A DNA stretch of 64,000 bases, taken from NCBI RefSeq assembly GCF_021365465.1, contig NZ_CP089932.1:1860001-1924000 (forward strand), given 5' to 3'. This document shows positions 1 through 14,182 of this stretch, piece by piece. How positions within the stretch are numbered: the stretch's first letter is position 1; each line of letters opens with the position of its first letter. The position numbers and the translations under genes are program-made. Source of the DNA: Erwinia tracheiphila (GTDB taxonomy: Bacteria; Pseudomonadota; Gammaproteobacteria; Enterobacterales; Enterobacteriaceae). Below the pieces are notes generated by a model. That model did no database searches and was not told the DNA's origin. It saw nothing but the letters and a program-made list of their open reading frames with translations.

Positions 1-687
1 GAGTATCAGGCGTTTCCATTCATCATAATCCCGGATGTGGGCCAGCGACGGCGGCAGGGACAGGGCCCCCCAGGCCGACAGCAGGAACTGACGCACGTTC
101 CATATCCACCTCTCCCTGACCTTCGGCAGCGCGAACGACATCTTTTTCCAGTCCACATGCGAGTTTATCCCTCCCGTGGTCCACGACAGGTGCAGATGGC
201 AGTTCCAGTTAAACTGGCGACCGTAGGTGTGCAGTGCGCCAAAAATGCCGATGGGGAGTCCGCGTTTCTCTGCGGCGTACAGCAGGTTGTCGGCCGCCAG
301 AGCAAACAGATGGTCCGTGAGCCAGCGGTTGACGGCAAACAGTGGCCACAGGGTGTCCGGGAGCGTGAAGGTGCCGTGCTGGCAGGGCGTGTCGGGCAGA
401 CGAGCCATCATCGTCGCAATCCAGATATCGGTGGCCTTTTTGCCACAGGTCGGGCATCCCCTCCCGTTACAGCTCTGGTGCACATAGCGGTGATGCGTAA
501 AGCCGCCGTTCTCACAGCAAAACTCCCGGCTGCCCATCAGCGGCGTGCCGCAGGCCAGCATCTTTGTGACGACCTCCACCTCCACGTCCCGGAGCGGGTA
601 CGTCTCTATGATGTCAGCCCGTGTCCCGTTGCGCTGGAACAGCGATTTCATTGGCCGGGGCTGGAAGGCGGGATCAGAACCAGCCAT
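1..687 (-). CDS. IS91-family HUH transposase (C-terminus outside window)
   Basis: The minus-strand reading frame opens at ATG 687 and stays open to base 1 (229 codons visible). The N-terminal zinc-binding region is visible as Cys residues near 57, 58, 73, 78 and 81 (GCPTCGKK). The HUH-type metal site is CHLHLS near residues 163-168, the signature of rolling-circle Y-transposases of the IS91/ISCR group. The catalytic tyrosine region lies outside the window. Its start overlaps the stop of the upstream small ORF by 14 bases, which suggests translational coupling. No stop or frameshift is visible, so the copy may be intact. Confidence 0.8.
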   Translation of the reverse strand, partial: MAGSDPAFQPRPMKSLFQRNGTRADIIETYPLRDVEVEVVTKMLACGTPLMGSREFCCENGGFTHHRYVHQSCNGRGCPTCGKKATDIWIATMMARLPDTPCQHGTFTLPDTLWPLFAVNRWLTDHLFALAADNLLYAAEKRGLPIGIFGALHTYGRQFNWNCHLHLSWTTGGINSHVDWKKMSFALPKVRERWIWNVRQFLLSAWGALSLPPSLAHIRDYDEWKRLIL

Positions 688-904
688 GCTCACCAGGCAT
701 GAATGGCTCATCTTCGTACAGTTCAAACGACCGGGTGAAATAGCGGTAAGCGGTATAGCGGTAAGGGGAGTCGGGGTACAGGCGAAAGAAGGTGGTCCAG
801 AACAAATCAATACACAAGGGCTCTTCCTCGATAAAACGACGAAAGAGCACCTGGTAAGAAATCTGTGACTCACTGGCCAGCGTTCTGAGAACATGCTTAA
901 CCAT
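674..904 (-). CDS. IS91-type leading ORF, 76 aa
   Basis: This small acidic/aromatic-rich protein is encoded immediately upstream of and overlapping the HUH transposase. IS91-family elements commonly carry such a first ORF of unclear role. No catalytic motif is visible. The 14-base overlap with the next gene supports it as a real element gene rather than a chance frame. Function is unknown. Confidence 0.5.
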   Translation of the reverse strand: MVKHVLRTLASESQISYQVLFRRFIEEEPLCIDLFWTTFFRLYPDSPYRYTAYRYFTRSFELYEDEPFMPGEHGWF

Positions 905-998
905 TTTTGTGTGAGTGAGCTGATGCTCTGAGGAATGCGATACGGGATCACCTTCGGCTGATGGGATTCAGAATAACGCTATTCTGCCACACATCGAT

Positions 999-1259
999 TT
1001 GCAGCCGCCAGGCTGCTTCGTTCTGAGGCCAGGCAAACCGACGCAAAACGCATTTATCGAACGGTTTAACCGAACGTACCGGACAGAAATACTGGATTTT
1101 TATCTGTTCAGAACACTGAACGAGGCACGGGAAATCCCGGAGCGCTGGCTGACGGAATACAACAGCGAGCGGCCTCATGAATGCCTGAATAACCTGACAC
1201 CAGAAGAGTACCGGCTAATGGCTGAAAAAGCGGAACTCTCAAAAATTGCATGGACCTAG
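999..1259 (+). pseudogene. IS3-family transposase C-terminal fragment (orfB)
   Basis: The frame encodes the last part of an IS3-family integrase-like DDE transposase. It includes the characteristic stretch PGKPTQNAFIERFNRTYR, containing the third catalytic acid, and a tail with ERPHECLNNLTPEEY. Everything upstream of about residue 200 of a normal OrfB is missing, so this is a dead remnant. It sits between the IS91 element and an IS1 copy. The 8-base IS1 target duplication at 1272-1279 lies just past its stop. Confidence 0.75.
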
Positions 1260-1332
1260 AGCTGGGATACTTACATTTGGGTCGTGACGCAGACTTGCTG
1301 ATCGCGTATGCTTTGCGCTTTGGATGTAACAT

Positions 1333-1608
1333 ATGGCTAAAGTTGATGCCGTCTGCCCTCAGTGCAATGAAACTCATGCTGTACGATGTAACGGACATTC
1401 AGCATCCGGTGCCCAACGTTACATCTGCAAGCATTGTTCAAAGACCTTTCAGCTCAACTTTAGCTACTCCGGTGCCAAACCAGACACACACCAGACCATT
1501 GTTAATATGGCCATGAATGGTTCCGGATGTCGCGATACCGCACGGGTCCCCGGTATCAGCCTCAATACGGTTCTGCGGCACGTAAAAAAATTTCCCCAAA
1601 GCAGGTAG
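1333..1608 (+). CDS. insA: IS1 InsA
   Basis: This 91-residue protein has the InsA zinc ribbon (CPQCNETHAVRCNG and CKHC) followed by a helix-turn-helix region. InsA alone binds the IS1 ends and represses transposition. An A7 tract at 1584-1590 near its 3' end is the expected slippery site for the -1 frameshift that joins it to InsB. All residues of the domain are present, so this copy could be functional. Confidence 0.9.
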   Translation: MAKVDAVCPQCNETHAVRCNGHSASGAQRYICKHCSKTFQLNFSYSGAKPDTHQTIVNMAMNGSGCRDTARVPGISLNTVLRHVKKFPQSR

Positions 1609-2030
1609 CTGAGAATATCGACCCCGAAACGGAGGTTGTTATCTGCTGTGAAGCCGGTGAACAATGGTCTTACGTGCGGTGTAAAAGCAATCCCCGGTGG
1701 TTGTTCTATGCTTATGACCGTATCCGCAAACGTGCTCTGGCCCACGTCTTCGGCCCGAGAAATGCCCCGACCCTGCGACGATTGCTGGCCCTGTTAAGCA
1801 AATTTAACCTTGCCTTTTATATGACAGATGCCTGGCCGGTTTATAAAGTTCTGTTAAGTGCAACAGGCCACGTGGTGAGCAAGAAATATACCCAACGGAC
1901 AGAACGACATAATCTTAATCTTCGCACACATATCAAACGACTGACCCGCAGAACAATTTGCTTTTCGAAGTCAGAGGAAATGCATGATAAGATCATCGGT
2001 TGGTATCTTACTCTTCATCATTATCAATAA
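1527..2030 (+). CDS. insB: IS1 InsB, expressed as InsAB' by -1 frameshift
   Basis: The frame carries the IS1 DDE catalytic domain. After the A7 tract at 1584-1590 it reads VAENIDPETEVV, then YMTDAWPVYK and the C-terminal HLNLRTHIKRL-like region common to IS1. The real product is the InsA-InsB fusion made by programmed -1 frameshifting; the nominal ATG at 1527 is upstream of the slip site and probably unused. No stop interrupts the domain. Confidence 0.88.
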   Translation: MSRYRTGPRYQPQYGSAARKKISPKQVAENIDPETEVVICCEAGEQWSYVRCKSNPRWLFYAYDRIRKRALAHVFGPRNAPTLRRLLALLSKFNLAFYMTDAWPVYKVLLSATGHVVSKKYTQRTERHNLNLRTHIKRLTRRTICFSKSEEMHDKIIGWYLTLHHYQ

Positions 2031-2133
2031 ATCTGCGTCACGACCTACATTTGCAGCAAAAAGATTTGATCCTTTATGCCGAAAAGTGACATTACTATAT
2101 TGGTGCTACAACAATCGGGACGGGTAAGACCAA

Positions 2134-3290
2134 TTATGTTAAAAATCTTGAAATCGAGAAATGTCTATGTTTATTAATCACATTAAATTTCGACCGATCA
2201 CCTGTGATTATTTCAGATAATATAATACCTACTGCCGGAGCTATTGTTAACCCTGAACCTGAAAATCCTGTTGCAATTAATATGTGGTCATTATCAATAA
2301 TGTCTATTATTGGATTTTCGTCTGGCATAATATCCATTAGAGCTGTGCATGTCTGGATGCATTCTATATTGTCGTTAAACAGCCTGCTGGCTGCGGAAAC
2401 AATTCTCCTATATTCAATAGAATTGAATAACCATTTATTATATTTATGTTGTGAGAGATTGCTTTCTCTCCAGAAGAACTTTTTTCTTATGTTGGGGTTT
2501 ATTAATTTATTATACTTTAAATATGAAGATATATTATATCTATTTAATATAATCCCGATACTGGAATTATCTCCTATCATAATATTATTTGTATTTTTTT
2601 AATGATGAGGCCATTTTTTACAAAGTTTTCGTTAAAAGAATACTTGTTATTTGCATATATAGAAGATATCAGGCATGTCATCATTGGAATATCTATTCCT
2701 AACTCATATAAAATCGAACGCGATCCACTGCCTGCACTGATAATTAAATATTTTGAATTAAATCTTTCTTTTTTTGTTTGTATCAAATACGAATTATTCA
2801 TACGGGATAAGTTATAATCATCATATATTATTGGTATCTTACGTCTTATAATTTCTCTATTTAAAAACTCATACACCCCAAAAGGGTTTACTGTTCCATC
2901 ATTCATAGTGGTTAGCCTAAATACATCACAACCACTTTCAGGATGCAACAATATATTATTACAAGAGAATGATTTCGATGAATTATTCCAATCTGTTACA
3001 GCCTTTAATTCATCACTTTTGAAAAAATATGATAATCCTGGCTTCTTGTATTTTATTTCGTTATTAGATTTATAATTCAAAATATTCCATTCATTCAAAG
3101 ATATTAAGGAAAGGTAAAGTTGTTCTTTTTTTCTTAATTGCTGTCTAATAAACCCCCATGAATTTATTGTTTGTTTTGACTGTTCATTCTTATCAAAAAT
3201 ACAAACATTCACACCTTTATCTGAGAGATAATATGCGGCCATTAATCCGATAACGCCACCACCTATAATCACAACATCGTAATTATGCAT
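2134..3290 (-). pseudogene. FAD-dependent glycine/D-amino-acid oxidase-type enzyme, split by a frameshift
   Basis: The first frame (3290-2577) starts with the dinucleotide fold VVIIGGGVIGL. The second (2580-2134) carries the C-terminal flavin site GFSGSGLTIAPAVG. The two together equal one DAAO-family enzyme of about 385 residues. The break is at a run of seven A (minus strand, about 2592-2598): one extra A would read through as IIKKNTNNIMIGDN with no stop. In hydrazine pathways the homologous oxidase (Spb39) is thought to cleave the N-N-linked lysine adduct to hydrazinoacetate and aminoadipate semialdehyde. The start overlaps the cupin stop by 8 bases. It may be dead, rescued by slippage on the A tract, or made as two pieces (ATGA overlap at 2580-2577). 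Confidence 0.8.
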
Positions 3291-3606
3291 TAATCCACCA
3301 AATAGAAATTATGCAAAGTTGGCTACTGGAAGTATTTAGGATTGTATGCTTAGAGTTTGGTTTAAAATAAAGAAAATCACCCATTCTCGCTATTTTATCT
3401 TCACCATCCAAAGTTAATAATCCTTCTCCTTCATGAATAAACCAAATCTCATGGTCATCATGAACATCTACAGGAGTGCAGGTATTTTTATCTACTGAAA
3501 ATTTTGATACACCAATGTTTGTTCCTAATTTTTCCAAGCCTAACATTGGAACTAGCATTTTTATTCCATCTAATGATAGATTAATTTCGGTCATAGGTAT
3601 TTTCAT
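3283..3606 (-). CDS. Small cupin, candidate N-N bond-forming subunit
   Basis: This 107-residue single-domain cupin has motif 1 with His49, His52 and Glu53 (HDDHEIWFIHEGEG). Motif 2 is GDFLYFKPNSKH with His87 and Asn91, so the metal-binding set looks complete. In characterised hydrazine synthetases a zinc-binding cupin domain rearranges an O-aminoacyl N-hydroxylysine into the N-N product and is fused ahead of a MetRS-like domain. Here it is a separate gene after the MetRS-like gene, overlapping it by 4 bases (ATGA, 3606-3603), which favours stoichiometric co-translation. A role in ordinary sugar or dioxygenase chemistry cannot be excluded from sequence alone. Confidence 0.82.
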   Translation of the reverse strand: MKIPMTEINLSLDGIKMLVPMLGLEKLGTNIGVSKFSVDKNTCTPVDVHDDHEIWFIHEGEGLLTLDGEDKIARMGDFLYFKPNSKHTILNTSSSQLCIISIWWINA

Positions 3607-5090
3607 TTTTTAATATCCAAATAACGGGGCTGACCGTTTAGGTTTAATTTAGTCCATAACTTCTGAGCAAATGATGGACATATAGGATATATAAAGGCAG
3701 ACAAAAATATAATTTGATTCCTGTCATTGACATTGATGACATTTAGCAACGAGATAACTCTATCTGCGACCTTTTTAAGGTTTAAGCACCCTGGGGATAA
3801 ATCAATATAATTTTCAAAGAAGTAATTATACATATCTAATGCGGGTATATCCGCATCATTTTTGTTATATTCGCCAAATGAATATATTTTATTAAAGATG
3901 ATTGAAATATTTTTAGAAAAGCATTTGAATTCATTCTCATCAAAATTAGTAGATGTATTTTCGTCAGGACATGTGTGACATAAATATAATCTAATTATAT
4001 CAACAGAAGAGCCTAACGTTTCAACACAATCTCTAGCCCAAATGACATTTCTCCTGCTTGTTGAAAATTTTGAATTATTCAGATGATAAAACCTATTGAC
4101 AAGGCAGTGACTATAATCTTTGTACTCACCTAATATTTTACTGAACATTGGGGGGTATATTAATAATGGAATAGTATTATCAAAACCAAATGAGAATATT
4201 ATTTCAAATTTACTATTATGTTCAAATGGGTTTTTTTCTAAACTAAATTCTATTTTTAATAACTCACCTAAAAATAATGAATAAAAGTAAGATGAGCTAT
4301 ATGAATATATAACGTGCTCATTATTTAAAGTTGCATCTTTTATTCCCCAACTTCCAAGCTCAGTTAGTCTTGCATAATCATTTTTTAATATATATTTATA
4401 TGCTAGTCGTAATGTATCTCTCCCTAATGATTTTTTTTTAGCACTATCTATTATATGTTTTTTATCCAAAATCAAATAATAGTCATCCGTTTTAACTAAT
4501 GCTAATTGATCTTTCGGATGATACTTGTCATAGCTGCTTTTAAGTGTATCAGCAGGGTTATCCATACCGCACACTTCGCAATAGTAACCAGAGCCATTAT
4601 TATTACACTCAGGGCACTTTCCAATTAGAGAAGAGCCTGTTATGTAGTTTTTTGTATTGCTGTTGTATGGAACTAAATGCTCAATTTTACATGTGAAATT
4701 GCTTTTTATCAGTTTTGTATGCATTCTTACCAAAAAAGATGTGTAATCATCTTTAATCTTATTATCACTCGGATTAATGAATAAATCGACATCAATAGAT
4801 AGTTTTTCTAGGCTTATTTGTATACATTTTTTATTAGTTAAGCAAGTTTCCTCAATAGTGCAGGAATTACGTAATGCCTCTGGAATAACATGAGATTCAT
4901 AAGAGTCAGTGCCGGTTGCAATATATATCTCATTTCCTAATTGTTTGTTAAATCTTTTTAAAATATCCATTTTTAAAAATGGACCAGCTATATGGCCTAA
5001 GTGTAGATCACCATTAGGTGTAGGCATTGCTGCAATCCCAAAATATCTTTCTCTTTTGTTATTTTTAATAAATCTATGTATTTTATTCAT
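3603..5090 (-). CDS. Methionyl-tRNA-synthetase-like ligase of a hydrazine synthetase
   Basis: This 495-residue class I synthetase fold has the HIGH-type motif PTPNGDLHLGH at residues 23-33. Four zinc cysteines are at about 159, 162, 171 and 174 (CPEC, CEVC), and a KMSKS variant KFSTSR is at 341-346. It is shorter than housekeeping MetRS (E. coli 677 residues), diverged, and very AT-rich. Its position between a lysine N-hydroxylase and a cupin, not beside tRNA or translation genes, argues for ATP-dependent ester formation between an amino acid and N-hydroxylysine, the role of MetRS-like domains in hydrazine synthetases. A spare MetRS for antibiotic resistance is the main alternative, but the operon context is against it. 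Confidence 0.85.
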   Translation of the reverse strand: MNKIHRFIKNNKRERYFGIAAMPTPNGDLHLGHIAGPFLKMDILKRFNKQLGNEIYIATGTDSYESHVIPEALRNSCTIEETCLTNKKCIQISLEKLSIDVDLFINPSDNKIKDDYTSFLVRMHTKLIKSNFTCKIEHLVPYNSNTKNYITGSSLIGKCPECNNNGSGYYCEVCGMDNPADTLKSSYDKYHPKDQLALVKTDDYYLILDKKHIIDSAKKKSLGRDTLRLAYKYILKNDYARLTELGSWGIKDATLNNEHVIYSYSSSYFYSLFLGELLKIEFSLEKNPFEHNSKFEIIFSFGFDNTIPLLIYPPMFSKILGEYKDYSHCLVNRFYHLNNSKFSTSRRNVIWARDCVETLGSSVDIIRLYLCHTCPDENTSTNFDENEFKCFSKNISIIFNKIYSFGEYNKNDADIPALDMYNYFFENYIDLSPGCLNLKKVADRVISLLNVINVNDRNQIIFLSAFIYPICPSFAQKLWTKLNLNGQPRYLDIKK

Positions 5091-5099
5091 GGTTATACT

Positions 5100-6374
5100 C
5101 TAATCAAAATTTTGAAATATATTATTTTTTTGTTCTATATAGTAGTGCTTACCAATAATGTCATTTGCAATAATAGAAGCGCGGATAGCACCATATCCCA
5201 GATCTGGTGATGTTAAACCATGCGTGTTGATTTCCATATTTTGTACATAAATAGTTCCATCCCCATTGTATTTAACTTTGTAATTAAAATCCAAATCTAT
5301 AGTTTCTTTATCTGTAAGTTTTATTTTGTTCTTTAATTTATCCAGGAAAGCGGGTATTTCGTATTTGTAACCTGTGCAACATATTAGATAATCTGTTAAT
5401 ATAGTTTTATTTTGTTCAGTTCGAGTATTTTTGAACTTCATGATAATATTATTTTTTTGTTCTATTTCTATCAAGTCTAAAAATGGGTGTATTAGAACAT
5501 AATTATCAATGTCATTATTAATATCACGATGATAAAGAGCATTGTATATGTCTGATATTGTGCTATAGCTTATTCCTTTGTATATAAAAGCCTGAGATTT
5601 TACTAATTTTTTTTTATCGCCATGCCCATGATAAAAAAACTTCGTGTGATCCAATGAACTAAATTCAAGGCCAAATTTAGAATACTCCATTTGAAATAAT
5701 CCCTGGCTCCTTGTCAGCCAATTTAAAAAATATTTTTTCTTACCATTCTCCATTTGTTCATTGAATAAAAATTTAAAAATTTCTGCTGAAGATTGCCCCG
5801 ATCCCAAAATTGTTATGTTAGCATTTTTCTTTATTTTACATTGATTTTTATAAAAATCAGAACTATGAATAATATTTTTATTTTGTTTAACACATTCTGG
5901 CGTGTAGGGTACGGTGCCAATACCAATAACAATTTTTCTAGTATATATCTTTCCTTTTGATGTTTGTATAGCAAAGCCTGTTTTTGTTTCTTTAATAGAT
6001 ATTGCAGCACAATCAAAAATTATTTTTTCTTTAATCTTTTCACAAGCCCATTGACAATAGTTATTGTATTCTCTTCTTGGTACTTTGAAGTCTTCAAAGA
6101 AGAAAAATTTTTGTAATCTATTTTTTTCATGTAAATAATTCAAATAGGTAAACTCACTTCTTGGGTTTACCATTGTACTTAAATCAGCTAAAAAAGGAAC
6201 CTGTAATGTTGTGCCCTCTAGTAGCATACCTTCATGCCAGCTAAAACTCTCTTTTTGCTCAATAGCTATATAGTTTTCAAACCCAGCTTCGTGTAGTAAA
6301 ACGGATAAACTTAAATTAAAAGGGCCTAATCCTATACATACTACGTCCGTCTCTTTAAAAAAATCACCCATCAT
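5100..6374 (-). CDS. Lysine/ornithine N-monooxygenase (N-hydroxylase)
   Basis: This 424-residue flavin enzyme of the IucD/PvdA/SidA type has the FAD motif GLGPFN at residues 15-20. The NADPH motif GSGQSSAE is at 191-198 and the C-terminal CCTGY at 333-337 matches the family ATGY signature. These enzymes hydroxylate the side-chain amine of lysine or ornithine. In siderophore loci they sit with synthetase genes, but none is here; the partners are a MetRS-like enzyme and a cupin, so N6-hydroxylysine for N-N bond formation is the likely use. It starts in an ATGA overlap with the restored GNAT frame and ends 9 bases before the next gene. Confidence 0.88.
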   Translation of the reverse strand: MMGDFFKETDVVCIGLGPFNLSLSVLLHEAGFENYIAIEQKESFSWHEGMLLEGTTLQVPFLADLSTMVNPRSEFTYLNYLHEKNRLQKFFFFEDFKVPRREYNNYCQWACEKIKEKIIFDCAAISIKETKTGFAIQTSKGKIYTRKIVIGIGTVPYTPECVKQNKNIIHSSDFYKNQCKIKKNANITILGSGQSSAEIFKFLFNEQMENGKKKYFLNWLTRSQGLFQMEYSKFGLEFSSLDHTKFFYHGHGDKKKLVKSQAFIYKGISYSTISDIYNALYHRDINNDIDNYVLIHPFLDLIEIEQKNNIIMKFKNTRTEQNKTILTDYLICCTGYKYEIPAFLDKLKNKIKLTDKETIDLDFNYKVKYNGDGTIYVQNMEINTHGLTSPDLGYGAIRASIIANDIIGKHYYIEQKNNIFQNFD

Positions 6375-6422
6375 TTTATGTCCTTATTATATGCAAAAAA
6401 GATGTCATCACGCACATAGCTA

Positions 6423-6803
6423 TTATTTTTTATATAATTTCTGGCCGACATAATTATCTTTGACTGTACTCAATGTGATAAATTCTGATTCTGTTTCTTT
6501 TGCCAGTTCCTCCGCTTTATTTAGTAGCATTGTACCTGTTCCTTGACATCTCGATTCCGCCATTGTATGTAAATCATATAACAGCCATATTTGTTTCATT
6601 TCCAGAGAAAATAATAACGGATGCAGATTTGTAAGATCTAATGTTTTTTTATTCTCATCCTCTACATAATAGATAACAGATTCATTTTTTTTTACTCTAT
6701 CTAATAGATAATTTTTAATATCATTAATATTCGATGTTGCATGGTAAAATTCATGATCTTTCTTAAAGAGAGGAACTATTTTATCAACATCGTTTATATT
6801 CAT
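6423..6803 (-). CDS. GNAT acyltransferase, C-terminus lost by a frameshift
   Basis: This is the first gene of the operon, 126 residues as it stands. The acetyl-CoA loop region is visible around CQGTGTMLLNKAEELA. The frame stops right after GQKLYKK. Removing one A from the A6 tract at 6426-6431 would extend it with NNSYVRDDIFFAYNKDIK, a typical GNAT tail. That extended frame ends at 6371, overlapping the next start as ATGA, so it is almost surely the ancestral one. A GNAT also accompanies hydrazinoacetate chemistry in triacsin-type clusters, so N-acylation of a hydrazine intermediate is a reasonable inference. Whether the short form is active is unclear. Confidence 0.78.
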   Translation of the reverse strand: MNINDVDKIVPLFKKDHEFYHATSNINDIKNYLLDRVKKNESVIYYVEDENKKTLDLTNLHPLLFSLEMKQIWLLYDLHTMAESRCQGTGTMLLNKAEELAKETESEFITLSTVKDNYVGQKLYKK

Positions 6804-6834
6804 TTTATTTGTCTTTTGTAATTATGTTATTTCC

Positions 6835-6877
6835 TATATTAGCTTATAATTGACAATTATATGTGATGAATGTCACA
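6835..6877 (-). promoter_or_regulatory. Perfect CRP-type site and putative class II promoter of the hydrazine operon
   Basis: TGTGATGAATGTCACA at 6862-6877 is a perfect TGTGA-N6-TCACA palindrome. An AT-rich hexamer TAATAT (minus strand, 6841-6836) lies where a -10 box is expected for a class II CRP promoter (palindrome centred near -41.5). The first ATG is at 6803. This suggests activation of the operon under cAMP-CRP control. Confidence 0.6.
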
Positions 6878-6948
6878 ACCTGTGGCTTTAGTGCATAGAT
6901 GGCTAATAACGTATCATTAACGCCTGCTCACTCTAAAGTCTGTTAACG

Positions 6949-7410
6949 ATGCCACATAAGCATAACACCAAAAAGCGTCATCACATTCCCAAAGCAAAAT
7001 ATACCATCACTAACTGGTCGCAATACGAAGCGGGATTGAAACAACGTGGCAGCCTGGCGCTCTGGTTTATCCCTGAGGCCATTACGCACCGAAAGGCTGC
7101 AGTCCGTACCTCTCCGGGTGAACAGCCGCGTTATTCCGACCTCGCCATCCAAACCTGTCTGATGCTCCGTACCGCTTTCAGTATACCCTTGCGTCAGACC
7201 GAATGCATGATGCCGTCGGTTTTCAGTATTATGGCAGTGAGTCTCTCTGTGCCGGACCATACCACCGTCAGCCGACGGGTCGTGAGATTGCCGCCACTTC
7301 CTCGCATCTCCGCTGAAGGGGCGGCCCACATCCTTATCGACCACTACTGGGCTAAAGGCCTATGGCGTGGGCAATGGCTGGAGGATAAACACGGAGCTAA
7401 ATCCCGATAA
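6949..7410 (+). pseudogene. IS5-family (IS903-like) transposase remnant
   Basis: The frame starts like IS903-group transposases (MPHKHNTKKRHHIPK, then NWSQYEAGLKQRG) and ends near WLEDKHGAKSR. It is only 153 residues, about half the normal length. Local frame disturbance is visible around 7340-7370, where the expected IDSTGLKVYG-like stretch is garbled. The catalytic C-terminal part is missing and the fragment runs straight into another IS5-family remnant. Confidence 0.75.
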
Positions 7411-7701
7411 GGCTCGTCACGGCGGCTCAACCGGTCTGTTTTCAGCCCGGGCGCTTCGTCGCCTTTGTTCGGGCAGAGTCCGGGTTTTTGCCCCGGGTGC
7501 CCCGTCTGAAGAGCACCGGGTGTGCCCGCCACCAGTTTGATGTCATGCCTGTTTGCTGCTGCGACGACCCGTGACAGAGGAAGCACGCCAGCATCTGTCA
7601 TCAGACTGCGCTTTACGCCCTGTTTCCCTTTACTGCCTGCCATACTTTGCCCTCAGATATTACCGTGATGCATTATACGATAACGCCTTTTGGGACAGGC
7701 T
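7411..7701 (-). mobile_element. Internally deleted IS5/IS427-type element fragment
   Basis: The right end (GGGACAGGCT then CTAA at about 7691-7705) is the terminal sequence of the same IS type found at 50539-51395. Inside, the transposase start is joined directly to the middle: MAGSKGKQGVKRS here against MAGGKGQISDE and, about 130 residues later, the GKQGVKRS-equivalent sequence in the longer copy. The joint falls at a shared GG, so it is a microhomology deletion. It has no coding capacity for a working transposase. Confidence 0.65.
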
Positions 7702-7720
7702 CTAAGGCGCGTGTCCACTA

Positions 7721-7909
7721 TTGGTGGGTAAGATAAAATTTCATCAGCCTGCACGGGGGCTCGAATGGTTTGAATTTCCTATACGTCAAGAAGTGGTATT
7801 CAAGACCCTCCCGGAACCTGATAGCAAAGTGCGATTTGATAGCCTGCGGAATATTTATGTATTCACTTGCCCCACATTTTTACATCGCGTTAGCGGTGAT
7901 GAGTTATAG
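7721..7909 (+). CDS. Hypothetical small ORF, 62 aa
   Basis: This short plus-strand frame lies between IS debris and the flavoprotein gene. No family is recognised and no clear ribosome binding site is visible. It may be a fragment of a larger gene cut by the IS to its left. Existence as a gene is doubtful. Confidence 0.2.
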   Translation: MVGKIKFHQPARGLEWFEFPIRQEVVFKTLPEPDSKVRFDSLRNIYVFTCPTFLHRVSGDEL

Positions 7910-8154
7910 ATGATGTAAGTATTCCTTAGTCAACATCAGTAATGCACACAAAAGCTAATGGATTAAATGGAAGATAAAACACTTAAATTTAAAGATTACA
8001 TATTCATTAGTTCTTGTGTCGAAATTAATAAGCATAAAAATCATGATCTTAACATTATTTAAATTTTATCTAAACATTTATTAAAATTTGTTTACATTTT
8101 TTCTACATTGAGGTTGTATAAGATTCCTAAATAATTAAAAAGGAATAACTGGCC

Positions 8155-9603
8155 ATGTACGATGTTGCCATTGTTGGACTTGGCGCAACAGGCGTAAGCC
8201 TGCTCAGTCAGATTCAGGATGAAATATATAAAGTCAGGACAGTGAAACCTCGTATTGCTGTTTTTAATCCTCCCTGCAGTTTCGCTAAGGGCAAAGCGTT
8301 TGGTGATGCCGATGCCGTGCATAAAGTGAATACCCCTCCGGCAGTGATGGCGGTAACGTCGACAGAGCCTGAACAGTTCATTCACTGGATGTATTCGGCC
8401 TTCAGTACACATGAGCAATGGCCATCTCGTCTAAAATACTCAGATTTTATCAGTCAAACCTACCGTGATATCAGGCATGCAGGGATACTTCACATAGATG
8501 AGTGGCGAAACAGCGTAACGGAAATGTGCCGGAATGCCGGTGGATTTGCATTAAAAGATGATAAAGGTGATGTCATTTATGCCCGAAAAGTAGTGATGTG
8601 TCTGGGGTCACTGGCTGCGGATATTTTTCCTGATTTTAAAAGCCACCACGGCTTTATTACACACTATACGCAATTTGATCAGTTTTCAGAAAAGCCGTTG
8701 CTCATTGCCGGAAGCGGACTTACCGCCATTGATGCATTCCGCTATGCACGCAGTAAAAGCCCCGTCGATATTCATCTTTACTCCCGCAGTGGCTACGCTC
8801 CTACCTGCCTGACGACGCGGAATACTTACATTCCGGTTCATCTGACGTGGCGTAATCTTATAGCTGCCAGTGCGGGATCAGACGATGTCCTCAGCGTCTT
8901 CTTGTGCCTGCTTCGCCGGGAATTTAATCTGCTTCTCCAGCACTGCGAGTTCAGACCTGCAATGAAATTGCTACGTGAGGGAAGACAGGTGGACTATTTT
9001 CGTTTACTGCTGTCACGGGCTGAGAAGGGAGACCTTCCCTGGCAGGATGTCCTAGTTTCAACAAGACCCTACATGCATAAATTATGGATTGCATTCACCC
9101 CCGGACAGAAGCAGCGGTTTATGAAAATGTATGGTGCCGTGTGGGCGGCATGGCAGCATCCGGTTCCACAGGAAGTTTATAGTGAACTACTGGAAGCCTC
9201 TGCCGCAGGAAAGCTCAAATTTCATCAGGCCCTGTCTTCTCCAGAGTGTGAGGGGGGGTTATTCCTGTTGAAAACCAGGTCTCAGATGCTCTCATTCACG
9301 CGTCTGTGGGATGCAACAGGGGGGCGGCTGCATATTGAATCCATGGAGCATCCTCTGTTGCGTCACCTGCTGAACCAGCAGTTGATTGAGGGGCATCCGT
9401 GTGGAGGAATCGATACCGATCCTCTCACTTGCCAGTGCAGAGTTAATAACCGCAATGTTCCGGGTCTTTATAATATTGGTCCACTCAGCAAAGGAAGCCT
9501 CTTCTCGACGAATTCCATCTGGTTCAATGCGCGGTGCACTGAAAGCTGGGCAAAGAAGTGGGCTGTCGAGTTTTGCGAAAACGTTGTTAAGGAAACACTT
9601 TGA
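8155..9603 (+). CDS. COG4529-type FAD/NAD(P)-binding protein
   Basis: This 482-residue flavoprotein has an N-terminal dinucleotide fold (AIVGLGATG) and a second nucleotide motif IAGSGLTAIDA. A KGKAFGDADAVHKVN segment resembles the conserved GxAY...N region of YdhS-like proteins (NAD_binding_9). The substrate is unknown. A purine-rich Shine-Dalgarno (AAGGAA) precedes ATG 8155. Its stop overlaps a TTG start of an AEC transporter gene (TTGA), so the two probably form an operon that oxidises and exports or imports one small molecule. It lies on the far side of IS debris from the hydrazine operon, so a link is only speculative. Confidence 0.72.
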   Translation: MYDVAIVGLGATGVSLLSQIQDEIYKVRTVKPRIAVFNPPCSFAKGKAFGDADAVHKVNTPPAVMAVTSTEPEQFIHWMYSAFSTHEQWPSRLKYSDFISQTYRDIRHAGILHIDEWRNSVTEMCRNAGGFALKDDKGDVIYARKVVMCLGSLAADIFPDFKSHHGFITHYTQFDQFSEKPLLIAGSGLTAIDAFRYARSKSPVDIHLYSRSGYAPTCLTTRNTYIPVHLTWRNLIAASAGSDDVLSVFLCLLRREFNLLLQHCEFRPAMKLLREGRQVDYFRLLLSRAEKGDLPWQDVLVSTRPYMHKLWIAFTPGQKQRFMKMYGAVWAAWQHPVPQEVYSELLEASAAGKLKFHQALSSPECEGGLFLLKTRSQMLSFTRLWDATGGRLHIESMEHPLLRHLLNQQLIEGHPCGGIDTDPLTCQCRVNNRNVPGLYNIGPLSKGSLFSTNSIWFNARCTESWAKKWAVEFCENVVKETL

Positions 9604-10486
9604 CAATATTTGTACCGTTAATTTATCTTTTTGCCGGCTGGCTGGCTGGCTGGCTGGCAAAACGGCTTGGAATTTTAAAACAACTGCCTCATTGATTTTA
9701 ACGCGCGTGGCAATTCCGGTTGTCATCACCTTTAACATAGCCACGCGCTCTGGCAGCATGAGTACCATTATCATCGTGACGGCCATCAGTATGCTCGTAA
9801 TGCTGATGGTGTCCAGGTATGTTCTTCGTGATCCTGTTAAAAGCCTGTGCTTCAGTTACCTGAATATAGGATGGCTGGGGCTGCCGATGGCAACAGCCCT
9901 GTTTGGCAATGAAGCCGCAACCATTGTTATCGCTGCCTACGTGGGTAGCTCTATCGTGGGCAACTCGGTCGGTGCTGCTATGCTCTCCGGTCACCGGTTT
10001 AATCTGTTCAAATTAGCGCAGACTCCGCCTGTGTTGGCACTGATTGTTGGGGCTGCGCTCATTCCATTCAGCCAACAGTTACCTCTGTGGTTTGACGGTC
10101 TTTATAATGTCGCGAAGTTCCTTATGAGCTTTCTTGGCATGGCGGTGCTTGGAATATGGCTGTCAAAAACTGAGCTAACGCTAAAAGATCTCCGACAGGA
10201 AATTCACCCGTATATGTTTAAATCAGCTGTGATGTTGATTCTGATCTCGCTGATATTATGGCTTGCCAGAACGTTAGACTTCAGACTGGTAACAGACAAT
10301 TTCGCGACGCTTTATCTCTTTTGCTTTCTCCCTCCGGCAGCGAATATCATCGTTCTTGAAACACATTATCTGGGGACTGGTCGGTCGGCCAAGATCATAA
10401 CCTGTGGAACCTGCATCAGTATTATAGCAATAGGCTTATTTGCAGCAGCTATCGCTATAAGCAGAACGATGGGCCTCGTCTCCTGA
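9600..10486 (+). pseudogene. AEC-family (auxin efflux carrier-like) transporter, frameshifted
   Basis: From TTG 9600 the frame reads TIFVPLIYLFAGWLAG, a first membrane helix, and stops at 9693-9695. The rest (ILTRVAIPVVITFNIA onward, about eight further helices) continues in another frame to 10486. One missing base near 9694 (CATTGATT instead of CATTGGATT) would restore LPHWILTRVAIP. The first helix is partly encoded by a tetranucleotide repeat of GGCT (9636-9658). Gaining one unit would also give an open frame, so reversible switching is a formal alternative to simple decay. AEC proteins move small organic anions. Coupled to the flavoprotein by a 4-base overlap. Confidence 0.7.
9636..9658 (+). 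repeat. GGCT tetranucleotide repeat, 5.75 units
   Basis: Five full GGCT units plus GGC lie inside the 5' end of the AEC transporter gene. Tetranucleotide tracts in coding starts can cause slipped-strand phase variation. Here a gain of one unit would connect the TTG start with the long downstream frame. Confidence 0.75.
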
Positions 10487-10580
10487 GGTTACACTGTCCC
10501 ATTCCAGGAAGTGATTTGAACAGTTCTGCATCCGGAAGCGTATCGAATAAGGATTCAATACGCTCGTCGTAGGTTCTGAT
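10487..10580 (-). pseudogene. IS110-family transposase fragment
   Basis: The minus-strand translation gives YDERIESLFDTLPDAELFKS followed by LPGMGQC, resembling the start of the C-terminal transposase domain of IS110-type proteins. It is under 100 bp and joined directly to an IS6-type remnant. It has no function. Confidence 0.45.
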
Positions 10581-10589
10581 TGCCGTGAT

Positions 10590-10885
10590 AACATTCAATG
10601 ACGTTATTCAGGCTCTTAATCTGTCGGTGTTCAACATCGGGCGGACACCGGCCCTCCCGTTTCAGTCACGCCAGCGCCCGGCCATAAGTGGGAGCCTTAT
10701 CTGTGTTGATGAGACAGGGGGCCTGCCAGCCTTTCACGTTATTTAAAATCTTCCCGGGAAAACGATATGCCGCTTTGCTGTTACGACGCTAAGAGAGATA
10801 AAAATCGATGGTGCGTCCTTTGCTGTCAACAGCCCGGCACAGGTAAGTCCATCTGCCGTTAACTGTGATATAAGTTTCACTGGGG
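10590..10885 (-). pseudogene. IS6-family transposase fragment
   Basis: Minus-strand translation shows TYITVNGRWTYLCRAVDSKG, then FYLS, a stop, RRNSKAA, and INTDKAPTYGRALA. These are typical IS6/IS26-type DDE segments. At least two in-frame stops are present and both ends are missing, so it is dead. Confidence 0.65.
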
Positions 10886-10961
10886 TGCAAGAACGAAGCA
10901 GCCTGGATTGCCATTTTGCTTGAGTCTGCCAGCAATGAATCCTTTATCCGGAGGTGCATTA

Positions 10962-11600
10962 ATGCGTTCCGATAATGTGGTAGTAAAAGAGAGCGGTATT
11001 GATAACGATGAGATAAATAATCAGGACGACAGAATATTTCCGGTTTTCTTTATGTTTATCTCGCTTGTCAACCTGATTTTTTGTCTTGGTTTTATCTTTT
11101 TTATCGATCTGAAAATTGCTTTTATGATTGCGTTGTCGTGTTACCTGTTAATCGTTGCTCTTGAACTGAAGCATGACATCAGGTCACCTGTCTCGATCTT
11201 TATGCTGATGATGTATGTGGTATTAACAATATTGTCATGGTTCGACGTTTATATCGGTCATCGCACTGGGATTATTATATTTACTTCGCTGGCGCTGCTG
11301 GTTGGAGGGTTTTTACTTTTACTGGCGAATAAACCATTTACAGCATTCTACTCTACCGGGCGGGGATTGCAATCGCTGCACTACACCAATTCTGCCCTGT
11401 GGTTGCTGGCGTATCTGCTGTCACTCTTTTTCAGTATCTGGTTTGTTCCGGAAATTGAATTTATCCTGGTTCCCTACGCGGTCTGCATTACGGCTGGCGT
11501 GGTCACTATATTGTTGAGCCTGGTGTGGTTTGGCAATGCCAATATCAGAAAAGACGCCTTTTCTATCAATAATTTTGATTTCAAAAGAATCAGGTCGTGA
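10962..11600 (+). CDS. Multi-span membrane protein, C-terminus cut by IS1 copy B
   Basis: ATG 10962 follows a strong GGAGGT and is preferred over upstream frames. The product, about 212 residues, has about six hydrophobic helices (for example FPVFFMFISLVNLIFCLGF). The last two codons and the stop come from the IS1 end at 11593, so the native C-terminus is missing or replaced. No family is recognised. The IS1 copy lacks a target duplication, so the missing part was probably lost by a rearrangement and is not on the other side of the IS. Confidence 0.55.
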   Translation: MRSDNVVVKESGIDNDEINNQDDRIFPVFFMFISLVNLIFCLGFIFFIDLKIAFMIALSCYLLIVALELKHDIRSPVSIFMLMMYVVLTILSWFDVYIGHRTGIIIFTSLALLVGGFLLLLANKPFTAFYSTGRGLQSLHYTNSALWLLAYLLSLFFSIWFVPEIEFILVPYAVCITAGVVTILLSLVWFGNANIRKDAFSINNFDFKRIRS

Positions 11601-11645
11601 CGCAGACTTGCTGATCACGTATGCTTTGCGATTTGGATGTAACAT

Positions 11646-11735
11646 ATGGCTAAAGTTGATGTCGTCTGCCCTCAGTGCAATGAAACTCATGCTGTACGAT
11701 GTAACGGACATTCAGCATCCGGTGCCCAACGTTAG
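11646..11735 (+). pseudogene. insA: IS1 insA with nonsense mutation (copy B)
   Basis: The frame begins normally (MAKVDVVCPQCNETH) but codon 30 is TAG (11733-11735), where copy A has TAC for Tyr. This removes most of InsA and the route to InsAB', so copy B should not transpose on its own. The ends could still be moved by transposase from other copies. Confidence 0.85.
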
Positions 11736-11839
11736 ATCTGCAAGCATTGTTCAAAGACCTTTCTGCTCAACTTTAGCTACTCCGGTGCCAAACCAGACAC
11801 ACACCAGACCATTGTTAATATGGCCATGAATGGTTACGG

Positions 11840-12343
11840 ATGTCGCGATACCGCACGGGTTCTCGGTATCAGCCTCAATACGGTTCTGCGGCACGTAAAA
11901 AAATTTCGCCAAAGCAGGTAGCTGAGAATATCGACCCCGAAACGGAGGTTGTTATCTGCTGTGAAGCCGGTGAACAATGGTCTTACGTGCGGTGTAAAAG
12001 CAATCCCCGGTGGTTGTTCTATGCTTATGACCGTATCCGCAAACGTGCTCTGGCCCACGTCTTCGGCCCGAGAAATGCCCCGACCCTGCGACGATTGCTG
12101 GCCCTGTTAAGCAAATTTAACCTTGCCTTTTATATGACAGATGCCTGGCCGGTTTATAAAGTTCTGTTAAGTGCAACAGGCCACGTGGTGAGCAAGAAAT
12201 ATACCCAACGGACAGAACGGCATAATCTTAATCTTCGCACACATATCAAACGACTGACCCGCAGAACAATTTGCTTTTCGAAGTCAGAGGAAATGCACGA
12301 TAAGATCATCGGTTGGTATCTTACTCTTCATCATTATCAATAA
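11840..12343 (+). CDS. insB: IS1 InsB frame, copy B
   Basis: The catalytic frame is intact and nearly identical to copies A and C (YMTDAWPVYK region present). Because insA is interrupted upstream, the normal InsAB' fusion cannot be made from this copy. The A7 slip tract is still present. Confidence 0.75.
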   Translation: MSRYRTGSRYQPQYGSAARKKISPKQVAENIDPETEVVICCEAGEQWSYVRCKSNPRWLFYAYDRIRKRALAHVFGPRNAPTLRRLLALLSKFNLAFYMTDAWPVYKVLLSATGHVVSKKYTQRTERHNLNLRTHIKRLTRRTICFSKSEEMHDKIIGWYLTLHHYQ

Positions 12344-12358
12344 ATCTGCGTCACGACC

Positions 12359-12669
12359 CTTTTTTGTAGAAGCTTTAACACTTCAAGGTTATCACCCTCG
12401 ATCATCAGATTCTTGGTGTTATCCCAATCAACGCTTTCATCTTTACATGGGCGTAAGGTGCCACGGGAAGGGGTAAGAGCAAGCTGACGAGCCTGACGCT
12501 TACCATGCCAGTTCAGGCCATAGCGTTCTTCTTTTTCGTCTACATTTTCACCCAAAAGATGTTTTAAAACGTCAAAATCAATGCCGTTTTCATTAAAGGC
12601 TTCAGGAAACAAAGAGTTAAGTTTGCTGATATTATCTTCAGTGATATTCATTGATTGTAGTTCTGTCAT
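12359..12669 (-). pseudogene. Type III restriction-modification methyltransferase (mod), N-terminal fragment
   Basis: Starting at ATG 12669, the frame encodes the N-terminal region typical of type III Mod proteins, including KNLMIEGDNLEVLKLLQK just ahead of where the methyltransferase catalytic DPPY motif should come. IS1 copy B replaces everything after that point. The methyltransferase domain and the partner res gene are absent from the window. It was probably cargo of the integrative element whose integrase lies at 14183-15350. Confidence 0.72.
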
Positions 12670-12867
12670 ATCAGAAGTTATTTTTTTTCATAAAAAGTAT
12701 CCGTCATGAGGTCACGGGAAAGCAGTGTCCGAAATTGGTAAGCATTTTACGGTATGAAGTGATAGCCATCAACCAGTGGTGGTTATTCAAATACATTCAA
12801 AACAAAGGGTTACATGCGGTTATGTGATGGGTTATCAAGCAGTTAGCCGTAATTTTCTAACTCAAAG

Positions 12868-12981
12868 TGTTCACCTCTGGGCAAACTCAAACGGTCTGAC
12901 CATACCGTTGATGTTGGCATCAAGGAAATCAGCCTACCACTGCAACATCAGGCGGCGCTGGTCAGGGTGCCTGGCTTTATG
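12868..12981 (-). pseudogene. Integrase 3' end, separated from its gene by the IS481-family element
   Basis: Minus-strand translation reads HKARHPDQRRLMLQW, a stop, ADFLDANINGMVRPFEFA. This matches the C-terminus of the second integrase (QRRLMLQWWADFLDANKNS). It is the continuation of the integrase at 14183-15350, displaced by the 1201-bp IS. The internal TAG in place of a Trp codon shows further decay. Confidence 0.8.
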
Positions 12982-14182
12982 TGTATTAGTCGCGACTTGA
13001 TCTGACACTGGACCTTGAAAGGTTGAGAGTTACCGGTTTTGATATGGGTGTCTAATCCTTAAACAAAACGCGAGGTAACTCTCATGATTCATACTAACAA
13101 TCCCATCATCAAACACAAAGCCGGCCTGCTCAATCTCGCCGAAGAACTCGGTAACGTATCAAAAGCCTGCAAGATCATGGGCGTGTCACGCGACACGTTT
13201 TACCGTTATCAGGAACTGGCTGCTGAAGGCGGCATCGATGCGCTGATTAACCAGAACCGCCGCGTCCCCAACCTGAAGAACCGCGCCGACGAAGCCACTG
13301 AACGCGCTGTTGTTGAATATGCCGTTGAGTTCCCGGCCCACGGGCAACACCGGACCAGTAATGAGCTGCGTAAAAAAGGCGTGTTTATCTCCGGTAGCGG
13401 CGTGCGCTCCATCTGGCAACGGCACGACCTGGAGAACTTCCGTAAACGCCTGAAGGCACTTGAGGAAAAGGTCGCCAGAGAAGGCATCGTGCTTACCGAC
13501 GCTCAAATCGCAGCGCTGGAGAAGAAGGCCCACGATGACGAGGCCAGCGGAGAAATCGAAACTGCTCACCCGGGTTATCTCGGGTCGCAGGACACCTTCT
13601 ACGTGGGCAATCTGAAAGGTGTGGGTCGTATCTACCAGCAGACGTTCGTGGATACGTACTCGAAAGTGGCACACTGCAAGCTGTATACGAGTAAAACGCC
13701 GATCACCGCCGCAGACCTGCTCAATGATCGCGTACTGCCGTTCTACGAGGCTCAGGGACTGCCGATGCTGAGGATCCTGACCGACAGGGGAACGGAGTAC
13801 TGTGGTAAGGTGGAGCAGCATGATTACCAGCTGTATCTGGCCATCAACGATATCGACCATACAAAAACGAAGGCGATGTCTCCGCAGACGAACGGCATCT
13901 GCGAGCGCTTCCATAAAACTATTTTGCAGGATTTTTATCAGGTTACGTTCCGTAAGAAGTTATACGAAGACCTGGAGAGCCTGCAAACGGATCTGGACAA
14001 CGGGTTGTGGCATTACAATAATGAGCGAACTCATCAGGGAAAAATGTGCTGCGGGCGTACGCCAATGGCCACGTTACTTGATGGTAAACGAGTCTGGGCA
14101 GAAAAAAATCTGAACCAGATGTAATCTGACAGACACCTGTATAAATAACCGGTAACTGTCAGATCAGGTCTGAGCTAGTACA
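12982..14182 (+). mobile_element. IS481-family element, copy 1 (1201 bp)
   Basis: The ends are TGTATTAGTCGCGACTTGAT and, inverted, TGTACTAGCTCAGACCTGAT, i.e. imperfect terminal repeats with TGT...ACA. It contains one transposase gene. A second copy of identical length is at 17658-18858. The 7-bp target duplication is exact. Confidence 0.9.
13084..14124 (+). CDS. IS481-family DDE transposase, copy 1
   Basis: This 346-residue protein has an N-terminal helix-turn-helix (ELGNVSKACKIMGVSRDTFY) and an integrase-core DDE domain. The core includes the DTYSKVAHCKLY and LTDRGTEYCG segments and a final acid near NGICERFHKTILQ. The frame is intact, so it may be active. It differs from copy 2 at only a few residues (for example AAEGG against AEEGG). 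It is inserted in the opposite orientation to the integrase it disrupts. Confidence 0.9.
   Translation: MIHTNNPIIKHKAGLLNLAEELGNVSKACKIMGVSRDTFYRYQELAAEGGIDALINQNRRVPNLKNRADEATERAVVEYAVEFPAHGQHRTSNELRKKGVFISGSGVRSIWQRHDLENFRKRLKALEEKVAREGIVLTDAQIAALEKKAHDDEASGEIETAHPGYLGSQDTFYVGNLKGVGRIYQQTFVDTYSKVAHCKLYTSKTPITAADLLNDRVLPFYEAQGLPMLRILTDRGTEYCGKVEQHDYQLYLAINDIDHTKTKAMSPQTNGICERFHKTILQDFYQVTFRKKLYEDLESLQTDLDNGLWHYNNERTHQGKMCCGRTPMATLLDGKRVWAEKNLNQM

What the first reader, a model, noticed from the sequence alone, without database searches (positions are those of the whole stretch)
2134..6803. Candidate hydrazine (N-N bond) biosynthesis operon in an Erwinia-like genome
One tight operon encodes a lysine-type N-hydroxylase (FAD motif GLGPFN, NADPH motif GSGQSSAE), a MetRS-like enzyme (LHLGH, zinc Cys x4, KFSTSR), a cupin with a full metal motif, a DAAO-type oxidase and a GNAT. 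Hydroxylase, cupin, MetRS-like domain and DAAO oxidase are the parts known from s56-p1 (Spb38/40/39) and related pathways, mostly in actinomycetes. No siderophore synthetase is present. The product may be a hydrazinoacetate-like or N-acylhydrazino metabolite.
Basis: partly seen in the sequence, partly recalled or inferred. Interest (0 to 1): 0.95.

Follow-up and report, generated by a model that had tools for sequence, protein, structure and literature searches.

The report
Diamine-type hydrazine synthetase operon in Erwinia
A small, probably acquired gene set in the cucurbit-wilt bacterium Erwinia tracheiphila encodes relatives of enzymes that join two nitrogen atoms, and is predicted to build a hydrazine from one of the cell's own short diamines rather than from lysine; two of its five genes are cut or split in this sequence, so it may no longer finish its product.

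Summary
Window 2134-6803 (minus strand) carries a GNAT, an FAD N-hydroxylase (NMO), a MetRS-like protein, a cupin and a DAAO-type oxidase in a 28-32% GC block of Erwinia tracheiphila (window 22-64 kb: 51%), between IS elements. But the oxidase lies in two frames and the GNAT ends about 20 residues short of its relatives.

The hydrazine reading is well supported: the cupin's best solved relative is RHS1, a proven N-N-forming cupin, with its metal ligands kept; of 80 public loci fetched with the MetRS-like family, 76 have an NMO within 8 kb, 69 a cupin, 65 such an oxidase.

The lysine/s56-p1 reading is not supported. The NMO is diamine-type: it lacks the lysine that anchors an amino-acid carboxylate (kept in 69 of 76 hydrazine-locus NMOs) and shares four substrate-site residues with Robbsia and Ralstonia NMOs. 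Robbsia's NMO sits in a hydrazine cluster beside genes for 1,3-diaminopropane; E. tracheiphila has relatives of both elsewhere in its chromosome. Predicted first product: a 3-aminopropyl-hydrazino amino acid. The amino-acid partner and end product are unknown. Known kind; new, divergent member.

The parts
6423..6803 (-). GNAT N-acetyltransferase, 126 aa, first gene; C-terminal end missing from this frame
   Evidence: PF00583 E 6.2e-7; 30% identical over 123 aa to the GNAT of the Robbsia hydrazine cluster; about 20 residues shorter at the C-terminus than its relatives
5100..6374 (-). FAD-dependent N-hydroxylating monooxygenase, 424 aa, diamine type
   Evidence: PF13434 E 3.6e-94; PDB: putrescine N-hydroxylase 279.6 bits, 6xbb (SsDesB) 271.8, 5o8p (DfoA) 257.7, against 133 or less for the Lys/Orn enzymes listed; substrate-site residues A63 L236 Y265 D391
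3603..5090 (-). MetRS-like amino-acid-activating protein, 495 aa, standalone
   Evidence: PF09334 E 1.4e-32; closest named proteins are standalone class I tRNA ligase-like proteins of Acinetobacter rudis (35%), Kordia antarctica (32%) and Ralstonia pseudosolanacearum (31%); tree
3283..3606 (-). zinc-type cupin, 107 aa, predicted N-N-forming step
   Evidence: best PDB match 5uqp (RHS1), E 2.3e-12; ligands D47, H49, E53, H87 present; H49, E53, H87 invariant in 25 aligned cupins
2577..3290 (-). DAO-type flavin oxidase, N-terminal part (237 aa frame)
   Evidence: PF01266 positions 1-223, E 2.3e-19; hit by the HMM of oxidases next to MetRS-like genes, E 3.2e-16 in a two-sequence search
2134..2580 (-). 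DAO-type flavin oxidase, C-terminal part, in another frame (148 aa)
   Evidence: PF01266 positions 283-352, E 1.3e-8; same HMM E 1.5e-10; a near-identical protein (P0242) runs unbroken through both parts
1280..2046 (+). IS1-like element inserted beside the operon, with inverted repeats and an 8-bp target duplication
   Evidence: inverted repeats, duplication TACATTTG on both sides; family name recalled from sequence, no database call
6941..7700 (.). transposase remnant (IS5-like by eye) on the promoter side of the operon, GC 0.555
   Evidence: ORF 6949-7410; GC; family name and outer limits by eye

Best explanation
This AT-rich five-gene block of Erwinia tracheiphila encodes the parts of a cupin/MetRS-like hydrazine synthetase and is predicted to join an N-hydroxylated diamine, most likely 1,3-diaminopropane, to an amino acid through an N-N bond. 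Step 1 (inferred): the flavin NMO would hydroxylate one amine of the diamine, which the host's own diaminobutyrate transaminase and decarboxylase relatives would supply. Step 2 (inferred from PyrN chemistry): the MetRS-like protein would activate an amino acid with ATP, without tRNA, and pass it to the hydroxylamine oxygen as an unstable ester. Step 3 (inferred from RHS1): the zinc cupin would rearrange the ester, with Glu53 as key residue, into an N-N bond, giving an N-(3-aminopropylamino) amino acid. Step 4 (weakly inferred): the DAO-type oxidase would split this, more likely at the amino-acid C-alpha to leave 3-aminopropylhydrazine, and the GNAT would acetylate an amine or hydrazine nitrogen. 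Shown: the genes, their motifs, kinships and recurring company. In this sequence the last two genes are broken, so probably only the N-N step remains.
For: Cupin: best solved relative is 5uqp, which PMC8664883 identifies as RHS1, shown in vitro to form the N-N bond; its ligands Asp, His, Glu, His are all present; x-H-x3-E is found in 68 of 69 cupins of the loci, with Asp or His as first ligand in 67. Company: of 80 loci found with the MetRS-like alignment, 76 have an NMO within 8 kb, 69 a cupin (4 fused), 65 a DAO-type oxidase on the same strand. Same order NMO-MetRS-cupin-oxidase in L008 (Flavivirga) and L024 (Aquimarina); L006 has all five kinds, GNAT included. Diamine: PDB ranking; residues ALYD identical to the NMOs of Robbsia and Ralstonia and of cyanobacterial relatives, against K in 69 of 76 locus NMOs; NMO tree puts the window with Robbsia, Ralstonia and Acinetobacter proteins, SH-aLRT 96. 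1,3-diaminopropane: Robbsia's cluster is GNAT, diaminobutyrate transaminase, a relative of diaminobutyrate decarboxylase, NMO, MetRS, cupin; the host has relatives of both side by side (60% and 53% identity), and a decarboxylase relative is in 37 of 37 genomes of the genus; N3-OH-DAPN and N4-OH-putrescine are named as shown substrates in PMC11705231 (that DAPN means 1,3-diaminopropane is my reading).
Against: No activity is shown. The MetRS-like protein is divergent (35% at best), its place in the tree rests on a fork of only 82% SH-aLRT and a long branch; Trinickia L028 in that same set has a K-type NMO nearby, so MetRS kinship alone does not fix the diamine. Both trees are quick ones and flag the window rows for long branches and odd composition. 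No structure model could be made. The operon lacks the diaminobutyrate genes, so 1,3-diaminopropane is an inference; putrescine or cadaverine remain possible, and SsDesB, second among solved matches, does not accept 1,3-diaminopropane. The oxidase and GNAT are broken here. Robbsia's 21-kb locus has no oxidase of this type, so step 4 has no precedent with an ALYD-type NMO in what I searched.
Confidence: 0.72

Rival explanations
1. Lysine-based hydrazine pathway as in s56-p1: N6-hydroxylysine plus glycine, cleaved to hydrazinoacetate.
For: Same gene kinds as Spb38/40/39 (PMC11705231). A diamine enzyme of this class, SsDesB, shows low activity with L-lysine.
Against: The carboxylate-anchoring Lys is replaced by Ala, and the other three substrate positions are diamine-type; the Lys/Orn enzymes among solved structures score at most 133 bits against 258-280 for diamine enzymes (the PDB itself labels DfoA 5o8p a lysine monooxygenase, but PMC8009421 treats it as a homologue of cadaverine hydroxylase SsDesB).
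Confidence: 0.08
2. Same operon, but the diamine is putrescine or cadaverine instead of 1,3-diaminopropane.
For: Best solved match of the NMO is putrescine N-hydroxylase; PMC11705231 names N4-OH-putrescine as a shown substrate. That enterobacteria make putrescine and cadaverine is recalled, not tested.
Against: The hydrazine-cluster relative in Robbsia sits with 1,3-diaminopropane genes; other close NMOs sit with diaminobutyrate transaminase and decarboxylase in a cyanobacterial siderophore cluster or in an acinetoferrin cluster (its 1,3-diaminopropane part is recalled).
Confidence: 0.3
3. A decayed relic (not exclusive of the above): the island was acquired, is being lost with other excess DNA of this genome, and makes nothing.
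For: Oxidase split and GNAT cut in this sequence; IS elements on both sides; PMC6168856 reports strong pseudogene formation and mobile-element invasion in this species.
Against: NMO, MetRS-like and cupin frames are whole with all motifs kept; an unbroken oxidase exists in a near relative (P0242), so the breaks are recent or strain-specific. A sequencing slip at A-rich runs is not excluded.
Confidence: 0.35
4. A siderophore or hydroxamate pathway in which the MetRS-like protein only acylates the hydroxylamine.
For: The NMO clade is shared with siderophore enzymes; without a working cupin the PyrN MetRS-like domain gives an N-acyl hydroxylamine (PMC8664883).
Against: A cupin with every catalytic ligand lies between the MetRS-like and oxidase genes; no siderophore synthetase is seen in the operon.
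Confidence: 0.06

Closest known systems
Robbsia andropogonis plasmid p1 cluster (NZ_CP139169.1, L091) and its Ralstonia relatives (a Ralstonia pair Ral1-Ral2 is listed as an identified hydrazine synthetase in PMC11705231)
   Same: GNAT, diamine-type NMO (39% identical), standalone MetRS-like (29%), cupin (39% over 83 aa), same relative order; identical ALYD substrate-site residues
   Different: Robbsia carries a diaminobutyrate transaminase and a decarboxylase relative in the cluster and has no DAO-type oxidase in the 21 kb read; the window has the oxidase, and the diamine genes lie elsewhere in the chromosome. Whether the Ralstonia proteins I found are Ral1-Ral2 or their partners was not checked
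PyrN (pyrazomycin) and RHS1 (Rhodococcus jostii) cupin/MetRS hydrazine synthetases
   Same: cupin ligands D/H-x-H-x3-E...H, MetRS-like partner, NMO; standalone cupin as in RHS1
   Different: they use N6-hydroxylysine and glutamate (PMC8664883); the window's NMO is diamine-type
s56-p1 set Spb38/Spb40/Spb39
   Same: NMO, cupin/MetRS function and DAO-type oxidase
   Different: fused cupin-MetRS and lysine NMO there; separate proteins and diamine-type NMO here
Alkyl-diamine N-hydroxylases SsDesB, DfoA and putrescine N-hydroxylase 7us3; acinetoferrin AcbB; anguibactin AngU
   Same: best-scoring NMO relatives with solved structure or plasmid annotation; AngU, the one I aligned, also lacks the carboxylate-anchoring Lys
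   Different: those are siderophore enzymes; this one sits with MetRS-like and cupin genes

Membership tests
cupin/MetRS-like hydrazine synthetase | cupin with metal ligands D/H-x-H-x3-E and distal H, the Glu invariant | tested here: met
   D47, H49, E53, H87; best PDB match RHS1
cupin/MetRS-like hydrazine synthetase | MetRS-like partner with class I ATP motifs, next to the cupin | tested here: met
   LHLGH and KFSTSR; 4-bp overlap with the cupin gene; kin of hydrazine-locus proteins
cupin/MetRS-like hydrazine synthetase | N-hydroxylating flavin monooxygenase in the same cluster | tested here: met
   PF13434 gene 9 bp upstream of the MetRS-like gene
cupin/MetRS-like hydrazine synthetase | forms an N-N bond from a hydroxylamine and an amino acid | not testable with these tools
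   needs enzyme assay
lysine/ornithine (amino-acid) N-hydroxylase | carboxylate-binding Lys (SidA K107) and partners N293, N323; L467 | tested here: not met
   A63, L236, Y265, D391 (residue roles from PMC8009421)
diamine N-hydroxylase | those four residues replaced as in SsDesB (no Lys, nonpolar, aromatic, Asp), and closest to diamine enzymes | tested here: met
   activity not tested
histamine N-monooxygenase (TIGR04439 equivalog) | score over the 700-bit cut-off | tested here: not met
   356.5 bits; AngU scores 805.9
functional methionyl-tRNA synthetase | NCBIfam MetRS equivalog cut-offs; methionine pocket | tested here: not met
   287.9 of 551, 242.4 of 633, 125.8 of 553, 99.1 of 587, 94 of 336 and 42.1 of 598 bits; pocket residues replaced in alignment with the genome's own MetRS (pocket positions recalled). 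Caution: a Robbsia hydrazine-cluster protein does pass one of these cut-offs, so the cut-offs alone do not separate the two
s56-p1/hydrazinoacetate pathway | lysine-type NMO | tested here: not met
s56-p1/hydrazinoacetate pathway | intact DAO-type oxidase that cleaves the lysine side | tested here: inconclusive
   oxidase present but in two frames here; unbroken in P0242; regiochemistry not readable from sequence

The most novel reading that the evidence does not exclude
A plant-wilt pathogen acquired a diamine-based N-N pathway that I found nowhere else together with an oxidase: hydroxylated 1,3-diaminopropane is welded to an amino acid, then oxidatively cut to release 3-aminopropylhydrazine (or an alpha-hydrazino acid), which the GNAT caps, giving a new class of small reactive hydrazine that acts in the plant or insect vector. 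It plugs into a host diamine route whose decarboxylase relative is in all 37 sampled genomes of the genus, so a four- or five-gene cassette alone would suffice to confer it.
Probability: 0.25. Interest if true: 0.7.

Novelty: new member of a known kind. Interest (0 to 1): 0.45.

Why it matters
It shows the cupin/MetRS hydrazine gene set in Erwinia, on a compact cassette beside IS elements, and gives a simple residue rule (K versus A at the carboxylate anchor, plus L/Y/D) that splits the NMOs of such clusters into likely amino-acid and diamine feeders. That rule makes substrate predictions testable for unstudied clusters, including plasmid-borne ones in Pantoea and Robbsia, and warns that a curated MetRS model labels such a protein methionine--tRNA ligase.

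Tried and rejected
Rejected: housekeeping or second MetRS; lysine-type NMO; histamine NMO (below the equivalog cut-off); composite IS1 transposon (the left IS1 copy has its own 8-bp duplication, so it came in alone; the second copy at about 11593-12359 shows no matching flank). Tried without result: Rfam at gathering threshold (0 hits in 1-12500); promoter scan (31 found against 33.1 expected, no information); papers holding Erwinia, hydrazine and cupin (0), N-hydroxyputrescine and hydrazine (0), the PDB codes 9l8v or 9vq4, the MetRS-like protein's best PDB hits (0); class- and phylum-wide genome searches for close kin (own genome plus one of 369 sampled at E 1e-60; own genome only of 398 sampled at E 1e-110); structure prediction (switched off). 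The primary paper on tested homologues (ref. 82 of PMC11705231) did not turn up in the searches; I rely on the review.

Papers, what I saw: PMC8664883, parts 1-4 of 7; PMC11705231, passages and section 15; PMC8009421, passages; PMC6168856, passages; all others only as search listings with starts of abstracts.

Full report
What is there. The window lies on the larger contig of a 4.96-Mb genome. The first 20 kb of its 37.8-kb second contig are matched at 100% identity over 63% by two Erwinia tracheiphila plasmids, which names the host. Window 2134-6803, minus strand, holds GNAT, NMO, MetRS-like, cupin and DAO-type oxidase genes in one tight run. Their GC is 0.28-0.32 with GC3 0.22-0.28, against 0.509 for window 22-64 kb. 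At DNA level the block is in 1 of 37 genomes of the genus, the own one; in 392 sampled genomes of the family only 5 others have a MetRS-like match at E 1e-30 or better, all 28-29% identical. This is what an acquired island looks like (inference).

State of the genes. NMO, MetRS-like and cupin are open and keep their motifs. The oxidase is spread over two frames, 2577-3290 and 2134-2580, each matching its own part of the DAO family. A near-identical protein from another public source, P0242, runs without a break through both parts (98% and 99% identical to the two pieces, compared apart); its listed start lies 64 residues inside the window's. The truncated form, P0241, is listed on a contig of 1,713 bases. 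So intact copies exist. The GNAT is about 20 residues shorter than its relatives. Real mutation and a sequencing slip in A-rich runs cannot be told apart here.

Why hydrazine synthetase. The cupin's best match among solved structures is 5uqp at 49.9 bits, the next 34.6. PMC8664883 names 5uqp as RHS1 and shows that it turns the ester made by a MetRS-like domain into the N-N product, with ligands Asp63, His65, Glu69, His103, each needed for activity, and Glu69 as the key residue in the calculations. The window has D47, H49, E53, H87. With a MetRS-like alignment I fetched the best 80 of 199 relatives in reference genomes. In 76 of 80 an NMO lies within 8 kb and in 69 of 80 a cupin, 4 of them fused; 65 of 80 have a DAO-type oxidase on the same strand. 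The misses (11 loci lack NMO or cupin) were not followed up. Flavivirga (L008) and Aquimarina (L024) have the window's order NMO-MetRS-cupin-oxidase; a Melainabacteria MAG (L006) has MetRS-NMO-cupin-oxidase-GNAT, its GNAT the window GNAT's best match in the set.

Not a MetRS. The protein scores below the cut-off of all six NCBIfam MetRS models it matches and only 32.6 bits against the genome's own MetRS. The cut-offs alone do not settle it: the Robbsia hydrazine-cluster protein passes one of them. In the alignment the residues that line the methionine pocket in E. coli MetRS (positions recalled) are changed: Tyr to Thr24, Trp/Ala/Pro to YSYSSS with a gap, His to Leu309, Trp to Pro313; the amine-binding Asp stays (D62). 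In a quick tree of 75 rows (55 of 80 loci used; one true MetRS as outgroup) it falls in a set of 13 with standalone relatives from Ralstonia, Robbsia, Acinetobacter, Fastidiosibacter, Aquimarina and Trinickia, on a long branch and at 82% SH-aLRT only; the program flags its composition. The Trinickia locus (L028) has a K-type NMO, so this kinship alone does not fix the substrate.

Which hydroxylamine. Among solved structures the NMO is closest to putrescine N-hydroxylase 7us3 (279.6 bits), 6xbb (271.8) and 5o8p (257.7); KtzI 133, SidA 127, MbtG 118, PvdA 88. 6xbb is SsDesB, a cadaverine hydroxylase, and 5o8p its homologue DfoA (PMC8009421), although the PDB labels 5o8p a lysine monooxygenase. 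PMC8009421 explains the difference: SidA K107, N293, N323 and S469 bind ornithine, while SsDesB lacks the lysine and has L237, F267 and, for SidA L467, D391. At these places the window has A63, L236, Y265, D391. Of 76 NMOs of the hydrazine loci, 69 keep K and 7 (all Legionella) have N; none is ALYD. Of the 16 other NMOs compared, 14 are ALYD: Robbsia, two Ralstonia proteins, P0153 (whose longest contig has the same length as that of MetRS-like P0007) and ten relatives from Acinetobacter, Aquirhabdus, Bacillaceae, cyanobacteria and others; AngU has AQYD and the Pantoea protein KNYL. These 14 include 13 chosen as close hits of the window's NMO, so their agreement is partly by choice. In the quick NMO tree (69 of 93 rows) the window sits in a set of 8 with Robbsia, Ralstonia and Acinetobacter proteins, SH-aLRT 96, again on a flagged long branch. 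Robbsia's plasmid cluster runs GNAT, diaminobutyrate transaminase, decarboxylase, NMO, MetRS, cupin (where the decarboxylase is labelled an aminotransferase); the decarboxylase matches the L-2,4-diaminobutyrate decarboxylase model at 423 bits, below its 900-bit cut-off, and the transaminase is over the cut-off of the family model TIGR00709. A close cyanobacterial NMO sits with the same two enzymes. E. tracheiphila has relatives of both side by side at C1:2585406-2588197, and a decarboxylase relative at E 1e-80 or better is in 37 of 37 genomes of the genus (in one of them only a 43%-identical type). Hence 1,3-diaminopropane is my first choice, with the caution that SsDesB itself does not take it. 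PMC11705231 states that N4-OH-putrescine and N3-OH-DAPN have been shown as substrates of such synthetases, so the diamine branch is known.

What stays open. The amino-acid partner, the place where the oxidase cuts (Spb39 and Apy10 differ in this), the role of the GNAT, expression, and whether this strain still makes anything. No paper in the held library holds Erwinia, hydrazine and cupin together; that library lacks most subscription journals.

Verdict. A divergent member of the cupin/MetRS hydrazine synthetases by every sequence test I could make, of the diamine branch, in a crop pathogen, with two tailoring genes broken in this sequence.

Noticed in passing
L095 (Klebsiella pneumoniae plasmid pKPN-8c6e, NZ_CP026396.1), 3667-10829: A MetRS-like gene sits with a KamA-like radical SAM gene, MalY/PatB and an MFS transporter; no NMO, cupin or DAO-type oxidase was found in the 17 kb: a MetRS-like enzyme in some other chemistry.
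   Followed up: partly
L092 (Pantoea ananatis onion plasmid pOC5aB, NZ_CP059085.1), 6377-14428: NMO (amino-acid type, KNYL), cupin, MetRS-like, FAD oxidase, MFS, ATP-grasp, substrate-binding protein, GNAT: a hydrazine-type cluster in Pantoea, only distantly related to the window's.
   Followed up: partly
L091:9983-11473 (Robbsia): The MetRS-like protein of a hydrazine cluster scores 949 bits against NCBIfam NF008861 (cut-off 633), named methionine--tRNA ligase; that model seems to label hydrazine-type proteins as MetRS.
   Followed up: no
L006, L007, L098 upstream of the MetRS-like gene: A PLP decarboxylase-like protein (ornithine/diaminopimelate decarboxylase type, judged by eye only) precedes the MetRS-like gene and may supply or trim the diamine part.
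   Followed up: no
Legionella loci L010, L013, L015, L017, L019, L021, L025: Their NMOs have Asn at the carboxylate-anchor position and no DAO-type oxidase was found within 8 kb; possibly a third substrate class.
   Followed up: no
whole genome G000: The window's NMO is the only PF13434 match in the genome.
   Followed up: yes
window 8155-10486: A PF13454 FAD/NAD(P)-binding protein and a permease-like ORF on the plus strand next to the island, GC 0.485.
   Followed up: no
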